NCBI GenBank assembly: GCA_007130245.1
Contig: SLSW01000177.1
Span: 1 to 37,348, forward strand
DNA: 37,348 nucleotides
From: Micromonosporaceae bacterium
GTDB lineage: Bacteria; Actinomycetota; Actinomycetes; Mycobacteriales; Micromonosporaceae
Reading direction: 5' to 3'
The position numbers and the translations under genes are program-made. Under the pieces are notes generated by a model. The model worked only from the letters and a program-made list of their open reading frames with translations, searched no databases and was not told where the DNA came from. This document shows positions 5,442 through 14,184 of the stretch, one piece after another (the stretch's first letter is position 1; every line of letters starts with the position of its first letter).

Positions 5442-5747
5442 GTGATCTTCAAGGCGGTGCTGGGGGAGCGACCATACCCGGACCATGGTCTGGGACTGCG
5501 GGAGTGGGCCGAGATCCCGCCGCGACAGGTGCGGTTGGACCAGCTCATCTCCACCAAGCGCGAGCTCGCACTGGACCGGTTGCTCGCGGATGACTCCACC
5601 TTCTACGGTGACCTGTTCCCGCATGTGGTGGAGTGGCAGGGCTCGCTCTACCTGGAGGACGGCCTGCACCGGGCGCTGCGGGCCGCCCTGCAGCAGCGCA
5701 CCCAGATCCATGCCCGGGTGCTGGTCCTGAACGAGCCCCCCGAGTGA
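5442..5747 (+). CDS. Conserved 101-residue protein, ParB-like motif
   Basis: A small soluble protein starting at GTG 5442, with a GGAGGAGG run (5425-5432) upstream. It reads IFKAVLGERPYPDHG, then PPRQVRLDQLISTKREL, then LADDSTFYGDLFPHVVEWQG, then YLEDGLHRALRAALQQ, then a final strand HARVLVL. From memory, near-identical proteins are widespread in Actinobacteria; some databases label them VapB-like antitoxins, but I see no ribbon-helix-helix and no toxin partner here. The DGLHRALRAALQ segment resembles the DGxHRxxAA motif of ParB/sulfiredoxin-fold domains; that link is inference. It lies 54 nt after the nitroreductase and converges with wrbA. Confidence 0.75.
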   Translation: MIFKAVLGERPYPDHGLGLREWAEIPPRQVRLDQLISTKRELALDRLLADDSTFYGDLFPHVVEWQGSLYLEDGLHRALRAALQQRTQIHARVLVLNEPPE

Positions 5748-5805: not shown

Positions 5806-6435
5806 TCAAGGCTCGTTGGTGCGTAGCGGTGCGGTGGCCGCGGCGGCGCCGGCCAGACGCCTGCCGTGGTACCGCGCGGCTTCCAGGACCGCCTTCCGGT
5901 AGTGCTCGTCCTCCGCGCGCTCTCCCACCAGGCCAACGCCGTAGGGGTTGCCGCCGGCCGTGATGGAAGTTTCGTAGTTGAGGTAACCGGCGGGCAGGAT
6001 GATGGAACCCCAGTGGTGGAACGTGTGGTATAGCGACAGCAACGTGGACTCTTGGCCACCGTGGGGGGAGTCGCTGCTGACGAAACCGGTGGCCGGTTTG
6101 TTGGCCAGTTTTTCCGCCTCCCAGAGCTCAGAGGTGGTGTCGAGGAACTGACGTAGCTGCGCGCAGACGTTGCCGAAGCGGGTCGGCGTGCCGAACGCGT
6201 AGCCGTTGGCCCACCGCAGGTCGTCGTGGGTAGCCAGCTCGATGTCGGTGGTGGACGACAGGTGGGCCCGCCACTGCGGGTTGGAGTCGATGGCGCTGTC
6301 GGGGGCGAGCTCCGCCACGCGGCGCAGCCGCACTTCGGCTCCGGCGTCGGCGGCACCCTGGGCGAACGCCACTGCGAGATGGTGAACGTTGCCGGTGGCG
6401 GAGTAGTAGATGATTGCTATGCGAGAGTTAGTCAT
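5806..6435 (-). CDS. wrbA: WrbA-like NAD(P)H:quinone oxidoreductase
   Basis: A 209-residue flavodoxin-fold protein. RIAIIYYSATGNVHHLA is the FMN-phosphate loop. GYAFGTPTRFGNVCAQLRQF is the WrbA signature around the flavin ring. SSDSPHGGQESTLLSLYHTF and the NPYG segment complete the family. WrbA enzymes reduce quinones by two electrons and so avoid semiquinone radicals. ATG 6435 has an AAAGGGA site upstream. It is divergently arranged with a TetR regulator across an intergenic region holding two palindromes of one family, so it is very probably that regulator's target. The base composition looks less GC-rich than neighbouring genes, which could mean recent acquisition. Confidence 0.88.
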   Translation of the reverse strand: MTNSRIAIIYYSATGNVHHLAVAFAQGAADAGAEVRLRRVAELAPDSAIDSNPQWRAHLSSTTDIELATHDDLRWANGYAFGTPTRFGNVCAQLRQFLDTTSELWEAEKLANKPATGFVSSDSPHGGQESTLLSLYHTFHHWGSIILPAGYLNYETSITAGGNPYGVGLVGERAEDEHYRKAVLEAARYHGRRLAGAAAATAPLRTNEP

Positions 6436-6529
6436 CGGTTGTCCCTTTCTCTCAATTACGTCTGTTTGGTCAGCGCTGACGAGCCGGCCATGCGGTACGT
6501 CCCTGCCTGTCCTGGTCCTCTATCGCATT

Positions 6530-6549
6530 AACCGGAACGGTCTCCGCTT
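6530..6549. promoter_or_regulatory. TetR operator candidate, imperfect copy
   Basis: AACCGGAACGGTCTCCGCTT matches the palindrome at 6567-6586 at 16 of 20 positions. It keeps the left half AACCGGA and the TCTCCG of the right half. Its start lies 37 nt before that of the perfect copy. It sits on the wrbA-proximal side of the intergenic region and is the likely second binding site of the divergent TetR protein. Function is inferred from position and similarity. Confidence 0.55.
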
Positions 6550-6566
6550 GTTTCTCGCCCCAGAGT

Positions 6567-6586
6567 AACCGGAGATGTCTCCGGTT
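6567..6586. promoter_or_regulatory. TetR operator candidate, perfect palindrome
   Basis: A perfect inverted repeat with 9-bp arms AACCGGAGA and TCTCCGGTT around a 2-nt centre TG. It lies between divergent wrbA and the tetR gene, 50 nt before the tetR start. Length and symmetry fit a TetR-dimer site. A further AACCGGAAC half-site is at 6607-6615, between this palindrome and the tetR ATG at 6636. Confidence 0.65.
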
Positions 6587-6606
6587 GGCGAGATCCGGCT
6601 GCTGTG

Positions 6607-6615
6607 AACCGGAAC
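6607..6615. promoter_or_regulatory. TetR operator half-site
   Basis: AACCGGAAC repeats the left arm of the copy at 6530 exactly and differs from the perfect palindrome only in its last two bases. The right arm is not recognisable. Starts of the three copies are 37 and 40 nt apart, a near-regular spacing. Confidence 0.35.
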
Positions 6616-6635
6616 ACTCCCAATACGCTGGGTCA

Positions 6636-7241
6636 ATGACCGGACAGTGGTTGCCGGTGGTCCCGCCTTCGCCGCCACCGGAGCGGGCTGACGCCGCACG
6701 CAACCGGCGGCGGATACTCGATGCCGCGGCACGGCTGGTCGGCCAGCGAGGACCGGAGGGGCTGACCATGGACGAGGTGGCGGCGGCCGCCGGGGTGGGC
6801 GTCGGCACGGTCTACCGGCGGTTCACCGACCGGGCGGGACTCGCGCAGGCCCTGCTCGACGCGCAGGAGCGGCGGTTCCAGGCGGCGTTCCTGCACGGTT
6901 CGCCACCACTGGGCCCCGGCGCGCCGTCCGGTGAGCGCATCCGCGCCTTCCTGCACGCGTACGTCGACCGGCTGGTCGACGAGGCGCCGTTGCTGGCGGT
7001 GGCCGAGTCGCACCCACCGGCCGCCCGGTTCGCCAGCGGTGCGTATGGCCTGCACCGCCGCCACCTGGCGGGGCTGATCGGGCAGGCACGGCCGGACGCC
7101 GACGCGGACTACGTGGCCGAGGCGCTGCTGGCACCGCTGGCGGCCGTGATGTTCCTACACCAGCACCGCGACCGCGGCATGAGGGTGGAGCGGATCAAGG
7201 CGGGCCTCGACGACCTGCTGCGCGGGGTAGTCGTCGCGTGA
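6636..7241 (+). CDS. TetR family regulator of wrbA (inferred)
   Basis: A 201-residue TetR-type repressor. The N-terminal helix-turn-helix is clear: ARNRRRILDAAARLVGQRG, then LTMDEVAAAAGVGVGTVYRR, then FTDRAGLAQALL. The remaining helical domain has the lower conservation expected of a ligand pocket, and its last helices should form the dimer interface. ATG 6636 is the most likely start; the frame is open to 6585 but the extra residues do not resemble the family. The gene is divergent from wrbA with palindromes between, so I infer that it represses wrbA and itself and is released by a quinone-like or electrophilic ligand. The ligand is not visible from sequence. Confidence 0.85.
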   Translation: MTGQWLPVVPPSPPPERADAARNRRRILDAAARLVGQRGPEGLTMDEVAAAAGVGVGTVYRRFTDRAGLAQALLDAQERRFQAAFLHGSPPLGPGAPSGERIRAFLHAYVDRLVDEAPLLAVAESHPPAARFASGAYGLHRRHLAGLIGQARPDADADYVAEALLAPLAAVMFLHQHRDRGMRVERIKAGLDDLLRGVVVA

Positions 7242-7277: not shown

Positions 7278-7893
7278 TCAGTCACCTGTGGAGGTCGAAG
7301 CCGGGCCGGGGTCGCGATTGCGGGCAGCGAAGGTGCGCAGAATCCGCAGGAAGTCGATGTAGCGGAGACCGGGCCAGTACACGTCGCTGAAGAACAACTC
7401 CGAGCGTACGGACTGCCACATCAGGAACCCGCTCAACCGGCGCTCCCCGCTGGTGCGGATGACCACTGCCGACCGCCGCCTCCGTCTCGACCAGTGACCG
7501 CACCGCGTCGACCACCTCCGCGCGGCCGTCGTACCCGATCGCCAGGGTGAGGTGCCGCGCTCGGTCGCTGGTGACCTCGGCCGCCCGCTTGAGCGCCAGC
7601 ACCGTCGGCGCGGGCAGGATGTCCACCCGACCGGCCAGGTGAATTCGCCACGGGCTATCGGTGTGCATGAGCCGTTCCAGGGCCGGGTCCGCCAGACCCA
7701 TCAGATAGTCGACCTCGTCGTCGCGCTGGCGCAGGTTGTCCAGTGATAGCACGAAGATCGTCACCTGGTCGATCCCGATCTCGGCGCACCACCAGAGCAC
7801 CCGCTCGATGTGCTCCACGCCGTGCCGGTGGCCGAGGCTGACGTGCGCGAGGCCGGCACGCCTGGCCCACCGCCGGTTGTCGGCGCTCCCCAT
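7278..7893 (-). pseudogene. Decayed cis-prenyl (undecaprenyl) diphosphate synthase
   Basis: Two frames together spell most of an UppS-type protein. The first (from ATG 7893) gives DNRRWARRAGLAHVSLGHRH, then FVLSLDNLRQR and [20 protein letters not shown]. The second frame (from about 7466) gives [17 protein letters not shown], then [18 protein letters not shown], and ends at 7278. At the junction near 7466-7475 roughly 28 residues found in UppS between the YGGR and RTSGE blocks are missing and the frame shifts. The catalytic MDGNRRW motif is altered to MGSADNRRW. A working synthase is therefore unlikely, and a second intact copy should exist elsewhere. Upstream coding is lost or unrecognisable. 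Confidence 0.75.
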
Positions 7894-8187
7894 CACCGTG
7901 GCGGGTCGCCCACCTGTCAGTATGGGCCCTTTGGGAGCTGCTCCGTTGGCGAGAGCACCGAGGATTGTGGTGTGGCCCGCCGCTCCGTCTGTGCGAGCAG
8001 GTCTCAAAGCGCCCTGCAGGACATACCCAGGGCTCAGCACCGCGACCGCGGCGTAGTCCTCGCGTGGATCGAGGCGGGCATCGATGACCTGCCGCGCCGG
8101 TGTCCCGGTCAGGACTGTTCCTGGTGTGCACACCGACCGGGTGCACAATGGTAATCATGATCGGCATGGCGGTGTGTGGTGACAGCC
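7894..8187. other. Gene-poor stretch upstream of the uppS relic
   Basis: The minus-strand frame of the uppS relic stays open to 8148 and includes RLDPREDYAAVAVLSPGY, but I do not recognise it as UppS or anything else. It may be remains of the original 5' end or of a second decayed gene. No RNA gene or repeat is evident. Confidence 0.3.
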
Positions 8188-13527: not shown

Positions 13528-14184
13528 CTAGCGGTTCCCTGCCGACGATACCTGTCCGTCGGGCTCGGCCTGCAGCGGGAAGCTGGCGATTCCCCGCCAG
13601 GCCAGGGCGGCCAGTAGCGCCTCCGCGTCCTCCTTGGGGACCCGGCGGCCCCCGGCGAGCCAGAAGCGCGCGGCGGTGTGGGCAGACCCCACCAGCCCCG
13701 CCGCGAGCAGTTCGGCGTGGTCGCGGGACACGCCGGTGTCAGCCATGATCGTGTCCGCGACCGCCTCGATGGACTCGCGCTCGGCCCGCTCCACCCGCTC
13801 CCGCGCGGCCGACTCGTTGCGTAGGTCCGACTCGAACACCAGCCGGAATGCCTCGCTCTCATGGTCGATCAGGTCGAAGTAGGCCTGCATCGCGCTGCGC
13901 ACCCGGTCCTTGTTGTCGGTGGTCGCGGCCATCGCGGCCCGAGTCCGCGATGCCAGCGCGTCACAGTGCGTGTCCAGCAGGGCGAGGTAGAGCTCCAGCT
14001 TGCTCTGGAAGTGCTGGTAGAGCACGGGCTTGGAGACCCCCGCCCGCTCGGCGATGTCATCCATGGCCGCAGCGTGGTAACCCTGCGCGACGAAGACCTC
14101 TTCGGCGGCGGCGAGCAGCTGTTTGCGGCGCGCCGAGCGTGGCAGGCGGGTTGTCCGCCCGAGTGCGGGCGTGTGCGAGGTCAT
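13528..14184 (-). CDS. TetR/AcrR family regulator
   Basis: A 218-residue TetR-type regulator. The helix-turn-helix is RRKQLLAAAEEVFVAQGYHA, then MDDIAERAGVSKPVLYQHF, then QSKLELYLALLD. The C-terminal domain contains FRLVFESDLRNE and ends GIASFPL, as in the actinobacterial TetR proteins paired with DUF3107. ATG 14184 is chosen because GGAGGAAG lies just upstream on the coding strand; the frame is open to 14334 without a better site. No clear palindrome is seen in its upstream region (14185-14357), so its targets are unknown. It likely forms a two-gene unit with the DUF3107 gene. Confidence 0.87.
   Translation of the reverse strand: MTSHTPALGRTTRLPRSARRKQLLAAAEEVFVAQGYHAAAMDDIAERAGVSKPVLYQHFQSKLELYLALLDTHCDALASRTRAAMAATTDNKDRVRSAMQAYFDLIDHESEAFRLVFESDLRNESAARERVERAERESIEAVADTIMADTGVSRDHAELLAAGLVGSAHTAARFWLAGGRRVPKEDAEALLAALAWRGIASFPLQAEPDGQVSSAGNR

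What the first reader, a model, noticed from the sequence alone, without database searches (positions are those of the whole stretch)
6530..6615. Operator cluster between wrbA and a TetR gene
A perfect 9-2-9 palindrome, an imperfect copy with 16 of 20 matches and a half-site occur at 37- and 40-nt spacing between divergent wrbA and tetR. This predicts a quinone- or electrophile-responsive autoregulated switch with cooperative binding on several sites. The operator half AACCGGAGA gives a precise motif for finding further members of the regulon.
Basis: partly seen in the sequence, partly recalled or inferred. Interest (0 to 1): 0.6.

Follow-up and report, generated by a model that had tools for sequence, protein, structure and literature searches.

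The report
TetR switch controlling WrbA quinone reductase
Two palindromic binding sites between a quinone-reductase gene and a divergent TetR-type repressor gene are real and very probably that repressor's own operators, and the same kind of paired sites recurs beside related repressors across actinobacteria, usually next to a flavin-dependent reductase gene.

Summary
In detail: a perfect palindrome (6567-6586), an imperfect copy (6530-6549) and a half-site (6607-6615) lie in the 200-bp gap between divergent wrbA and a TetR gene. No other sites occur in the 4.15-Mb draft genome, so this is a local switch, not a regulon marker.

Comparison makes the site-to-protein assignment strong. Of 217 distinct relatives of this TetR, 199 carry at least one and 137 at least two operators of the form AANYGGA-N6/7-TCCRNTT upstream (shuffles: 1-5). 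None lies at 20 other TetR genes of the same genome, nor convincingly at 19 wrbA homologues without this TetR. The wrbA-tetR pair recurs divergently in 18 other loci, all with the operator. Elsewhere the partner is another flavin or quinone reductase, YceI, SDR, rhodanese or others. That supports, without proving, a quinone-like ligand. The TetR has no cysteine, so thiol-based electrophile sensing is excluded.

The base after the GGA core tracks the first residue of the recognition helix in 199 of 199 loci, but only two independent switches occur on the tree. Cooperative binding is unsupported: spacing varies (23-47 bp). Two-operator divergent TetR switches are a known kind.

The parts
5806..6435 (-). 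[quoted passage not shown]
   Evidence: NF002999 156.9 bits (cut-off 141) and TIGR01755 142.5 bits (cut-off 132.5); nearest solved relatives are WrbA proteins, 1ydg E 5e-43
6530..6549 (.). Operator O2, imperfect palindrome AACCGGAACGGTCTCCGCTT, wrbA-proximal
   Evidence: 16 of 20 identical to O1; fits the family core with no mismatch; two or more operators are present in 137 of 217 relatives
6567..6586 (.). Operator O1, perfect palindrome AACCGGAGATGTCTCCGGTT
   Evidence: same motif upstream of TetR relatives, for example L006 with an exact match
6607..6615 (+). Half-site AACCGGAAC, just upstream of the predicted tetR -10; possible weak third site
   Evidence: sequence; weak, function unproven; full third sites occur in only 7 of 217 relatives
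6562..6567 (-). Candidate wrbA -10 element TACTCT abutting O1 (inferred)
   Evidence: only TANNNT hexamer on the minus strand of 6436-6600; inference
6624..6629 (+). Candidate tetR -10 element TACGCT, 6 nt before the ATG (leaderless start inferred)
   Evidence: TANNCT follows the tetR-proximal operator in 78 of 199 relatives against 16 in shuffles
6636..7241 (+). tetR: 201-aa TetR-family repressor, no cysteine, recognition helix residues 56-62 (VGTVYRR)
   Evidence: PF00440 E 1.5e-15; AlphaFold model pLDDT 90.6; cysteine count 0

Best explanation
It is a local, self-contained repressor switch. The TetR dimer binds O1 and O2, which overlap or flank the two divergent promoters, and represses wrbA and its own gene. 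A small hydrophobic ligand, most likely a quinone or related redox-active aromatic that WrbA reduces, binds non-covalently in the C-terminal pocket and releases the protein, so that WrbA is made when its substrate is present. Shown by computation: the sites, their linkage to this TetR lineage, the conserved wrbA pairing and the absence of other sites in the genome. Inferred: binding, repression, promoter positions and the ligand. The confidence given is for the TetR-operator-wrbA switch; for the quinone part alone it is about 0.55.
For: Both sites exist and are unique in the genome. Of 217 distinct TetR relatives, 199 have at least one and 137 at least two such operators upstream; shuffles give 1-5 and 0, and the coding control gives 1 and 0. 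None of 20 other TetR loci of the same genome has one. Of 19 wrbA homologue loci without this TetR, none has a convincing one; the single marginal hit (L154) lies at the far end of the locus. The wrbA-tetR pair is divergent in 19 loci including the window, all 19 with at least one operator and 17 with two or more. Partners elsewhere are mostly flavin or quinone reductases: 117 of 187 assigned. A -10-like TANNCT follows the tetR-proximal operator, modally 15 nt downstream. Precedent: actinobacterial TetR genes within about 200 bp of a divergent gene repress it through 1-3 palindromes (PMC3511530).
Against: No binding, expression or ligand data exist. Thirty of 217 relatives have no assigned partner, and 38 face a rhodanese and 9 a YdcZ-type exporter, which do not fit quinones directly. 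Both other genomes of the genus lack a close TetR relative and any site, so the module is accessory there. At 200 bp the wrbA-tetR gap sits at the edge of the published rule.
Confidence: 0.85

Rival explanations
1. Same repressor and operators, but the ligand is not a quinone. It could be another aromatic, an antibiotic, a lipid or isoprenoid, or a sulfur species, and WrbA is only one of several detoxifying enzymes recruited to the switch.
For: The partner gene changes at least 21 times on the tree and includes rhodanese (38), SDR (13), YdcZ exporter (9), YceI (6) and cupin (3).
Against: 117 of 187 assigned partners are flavin- or F420-dependent reductases of the kinds that reduce quinones, and YceI proteins bind isoprenoids or quinones (own knowledge).
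Confidence: 0.35
2. Electrophile or oxidant sensing by cysteine modification in the TetR, as in NemR or the MarR/DUF24 quinone sensors.
For: WrbA-type enzymes accompany electrophile responses in other bacteria (own knowledge).
Against: The window TetR has no cysteine; 14 of 19 wrbA-paired TetRs have none and the other 5 have one each.
Confidence: 0.02
3. The palindromes are bound by a different regulator, or are RNA or terminator structures, and the TetR next door is coincidental.
For: The region is intergenic and a perfect inverted repeat could in principle form a hairpin.
Against: The motif follows this TetR lineage across many genera and partners and is absent next to wrbA without it; no terminator was found; its inner base tracks the TetR recognition helix.
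Confidence: 0.03
4. TetR binds O1 and O2 cooperatively as a pair of dimers.
For: Most relatives have two operators; spacings cluster at 34-35 bp.
Against: Spacing runs from 23 to 47 bp and differs between clades; the weak 10.5-bp phasing (R 0.39) is not corrected for relatedness. In many relatives each operator simply sits by one promoter.
Confidence: 0.2

Closest known systems
Divergent TetR repressor switch with paired operators (TetR/tetA type); actinobacterial examples SCO7222/SCO7223 and SAV576/SAV575 (PMC3511530, PMC3742746)
   Same: Divergent regulator and enzyme gene, a gap of about 200 bp or less, two or three near-identical palindromes with one perfect copy, autoregulation
   Different: Different operator sequence (SAV576 CCRTACRVYGTATGS; SCO7222 TGGAACG-N-CGTTCCA, which shares GGA..TCC arms); different target enzymes; no experiment here
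NemR of E. coli (TetR family, quinone/electrophile response; own knowledge)
   Same: TetR-family control of reductase genes against reactive carbonyls or quinones
   Different: NemR works through cysteine; the window protein has none
KstR of Mycobacterium tuberculosis (best fold match, Z 15.9, 22% identity)
   Same: Fold; DNA-binding mode expected to be alike
   Different: Large lipid regulon; generic fold similarity only, many TetR structures tie
TetR protein 2q24 of the PDB (closest solved relative by sequence)
   Same: Matches over residues 14-187, E 8.7e-10
   Different: Uncharacterised; deposited as a putative TetR regulator

Membership tests
TetR-family transcriptional regulator | N-terminal TetR_N helix-turn-helix domain above the curated cut-off | tested here: met
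   PF00440 57.1 bits, cut-off 24
TetR-family transcriptional regulator | All-helical fold with C-terminal ligand-binding domain | tested here: met
   AlphaFold model all-helical, best match KstR Z 15.9 over 181 residues; the ligand pocket itself was not examined
WrbA, NAD(P)H:quinone oxidoreductase type IV | Score above the equivalog cut-off | tested here: met
   TIGR01755 142.5 against 132.5; NF002999 156.9 against 141
Divergent TetR repressor switch ('200 bp rule') | Divergent genes separated by about 200 bp or less with palindromic operators in the gap | tested here: met
   Gap 6436-6635 is 200 bp, with two operators inside
Divergent TetR repressor switch ('200 bp rule') | Regulator binds the gap and represses the divergent gene | not testable with these tools
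   Needs gel shift and reporter assay
Thiol-based quinone/electrophile sensor (NemR-like) | Reactive cysteine in the regulator | tested here: not met
   No cysteine in 201 residues
Quinone-responsive regulator | Release from DNA by a quinone | not testable with these tools
   Only guilt by association from partner genes

The most novel reading that the evidence does not exclude
An apparently undescribed actinobacterial TetR subfamily forms one modular detoxification switch: a conserved paired operator AANYGGA-N6/7-TCCRNTT and a repressor that keeps its operator core while swapping its divergent redox partner (WrbA, azoreductase, FMN reductase, F420-quinone reductase, YceI, SDR, rhodanese). Within it, the first residue of the recognition helix sets the base after GGA (Lys/Arg with C; Val/Ile with A, G or T), and Arg goes with a one-base longer spacer.
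Probability: 0.55. Interest if true: 0.6.

Novelty: new member of a known kind. Interest (0 to 1): 0.42.

Why it matters
The single locus is an ordinary two-operator TetR switch. The wider value is that one operator design can be read across some 200 relatives with different reductase partners. This gives ready-made predictions for which enzymes respond to redox-active small molecules in actinobacteria, a defined set of repressor-operator pairs for engineering, and a clean natural case for testing how one recognition-helix residue sets operator specificity.

Tried and rejected
Regulon search in the own genome: no further site with up to 3 mismatches; the loose core pattern with 1 mismatch adds four weak places, near the control rate (6 hits in all against 2 in the reversed control). 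A motif-only scan of 201 family genomes gave mostly scattered 2-mismatch hits; the repeated AACCGGAGG-N2-CCTCCGGTT hits look like another regulator's motif and were not followed.

Residue-to-base code: perfect at locus level (199 of 199), but residue class and base each change only twice on a tree built without the DNA-binding domain, so the independent-pairs test has no power. It is an association, not a demonstrated determinant. In the first set residue 59 did not track the second inner base: FMN-reductase-linked proteins with L59 keep CC (L022, L142), and V59 proteins of the other group keep CT (L093, L113, L123).

The operator scan fixes the GGA..TCC core, so that core cannot be counted as evidence; the bases after it and the flanks were only weakly constrained. 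An unbiased best-palindrome scan finds the same core in 56 of 81 loci with a strong palindrome.

Literature searches found no description of this TetR group or of a TetR-wrbA pair of this kind; PpzU/PpzV of a phenazine cluster (PMC3326630) is a WrbA-like gene beside a TetR-like protein that has no Pfam match, so it is a different one. Only open-licence papers were searched. Sigma-70 and terminator scans found nothing.

Full report
What is there. The gap 6436-6635 between wrbA (5806-6435, minus) and a TetR gene (6636-7241, plus) holds a perfect palindrome AACCGGAGATGTCTCCGGTT (6567-6586, here O1), a copy with 16 of 20 matches (6530-6549, O2) and a half-site AACCGGAAC (6607-6615), at 37 and 40 nt. 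Two matches in the window against 0.01 expected make chance very unlikely. In the 4.15-Mb draft genome (95% complete) there is no other match within 3 mismatches. The genes are correctly named: the enzyme passes both WrbA equivalog cut-offs, the regulator has a TetR_N domain and models as an ordinary TetR fold with the recognition helix at residues 56-62. The window's family is probably Micromonosporaceae: one genome of the same family has a contig of 1,014,376 bases with a relative of this TetR, the same length as a named Actinorhabdospora filicis record.

Whose sites are they. I collected relatives of the TetR from three searches (with further stretches fetched), 217 distinct proteins, mostly 40-66% identical. 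In a 420-base stretch upstream of the recognition helix, 199 have at least one and 137 at least two operators of the form AANYGGA-N6-TCCRNTT (one more spacer base in one clade); shuffled sequences give 1-5 and 0, the interior of the gene gives 1 and 0. Twenty other TetR loci of the same genome have none. Nineteen wrbA homologues without this TetR have no convincing one; one marginal hit lies far from the gene. The sites therefore travel with the TetR, not with wrbA.

The pair is conserved. Nineteen loci, the window included, have wrbA divergent from the TetR (streptomycetes and several families coded only by number), every one with an operator and 17 with at least two; two further loci have wrbA on the same strand. 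On the tree of the C-terminal domain, presence of wrbA changes only three times among loci with a known partner. Both other genomes of the window's genus lack a close relative of the TetR (best E 1e-7 to 1e-8) and any site, so the module is patchy.

What it controls elsewhere. Of 187 loci with an assigned partner, 50 face an FMN_red reductase, 38 a rhodanese, 23 and 18 azoreductase-like Flavodoxin_2 proteins, 19 WrbA, 13 an SDR, 9 a YdcZ exporter, 6 YceI, 5 an F420H2-dependent quinone reductase, 3 a cupin, 2 a flavodoxin, 1 an FAD oxidase (assignment by similarity to one scanned representative each). So 117 of 187 are flavin- or F420-dependent reductases. That is the main support for a quinone-like signal. 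It is guilt by association, and the rhodanese clade does not fit it simply.

How it probably works. The candidate tetR -10 element TACGCT (6624-6629) lies 6 nt before the ATG; in the family a TANNCT hexamer follows the tetR-proximal operator in 78 of 199 loci against 16 in shuffles, most often 15 nt downstream, so that operator would cover the -35 region. On the other strand TACTCT (6567-6562) abuts O1 and is the only candidate -10 of that form for wrbA, with O2 just downstream. Occupancy of O1 and O2 would thus block both promoters. The published precedent is strong: actinobacterial TetR genes with gaps of about 200 bp or less repress the divergent gene through one to three palindromes (PMC3511530; PMC3742746). 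The protein has no cysteine, so release must come from non-covalent ligand binding, not thiol modification. Binding, repression and ligand are inferred.

A recognition pattern. With Lys or Arg as the first residue of the recognition helix (position 56) the base after GGA is C on both arms of the best operator in 150 of 150 loci; with Val or Ile it is not C on either arm in 49 of 49. Arg56 goes with the 21-bp spacing (55 of 55 sites). But residue and base each switch only twice on a tree made without the DNA-binding domain, so relatedness alone could account for the correlation, and residue 59 looks correlated in parts yet fails across clades. The V56K swap is the right experiment.

Verdict. 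Quinone sensing is plausible, about 50-60% likely in my judgement; cysteine-based electrophile sensing is excluded; cooperativity and a wider regulon are not supported. As a single locus it is a new member of a known kind; the family-wide pattern is the more interesting outcome.

Noticed in passing
7278-8148 (-): An isoprenyl (undecaprenyl) diphosphate synthase gene downstream of tetR appears frameshifted: its C-terminal part ([31 protein letters not shown]...) is in a different frame from the N-terminal part, with the break near 7478. Real lesion or assembly error not resolved.
   Followed up: partly
13978-14118 (-): A second TetR-type helix-turn-helix gene lies in the window; it has no operator of this type.
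   Followed up: partly
5442-5747 (+): A VapB-like antitoxin family protein (PF23719, 166.6 bits) lies convergent to wrbA; no toxin partner was sought.
   Followed up: no
own genome, contig C325:5417-5998: A second WrbA paralogue (57% identical) exists in the same genome, with no copy of the operator there.
   Followed up: partly
relatives of the family, e.g. G014:C10:97643-97662 (L034) and G011:C3:515348-515367 (L048): A different palindrome AACCGGAGG-N2-CCTCCGGTT recurs in about fifteen genomes of the family; in these two it lies just upstream of another, more distant TetR gene, so it is probably that regulator's operator.
   Followed up: no
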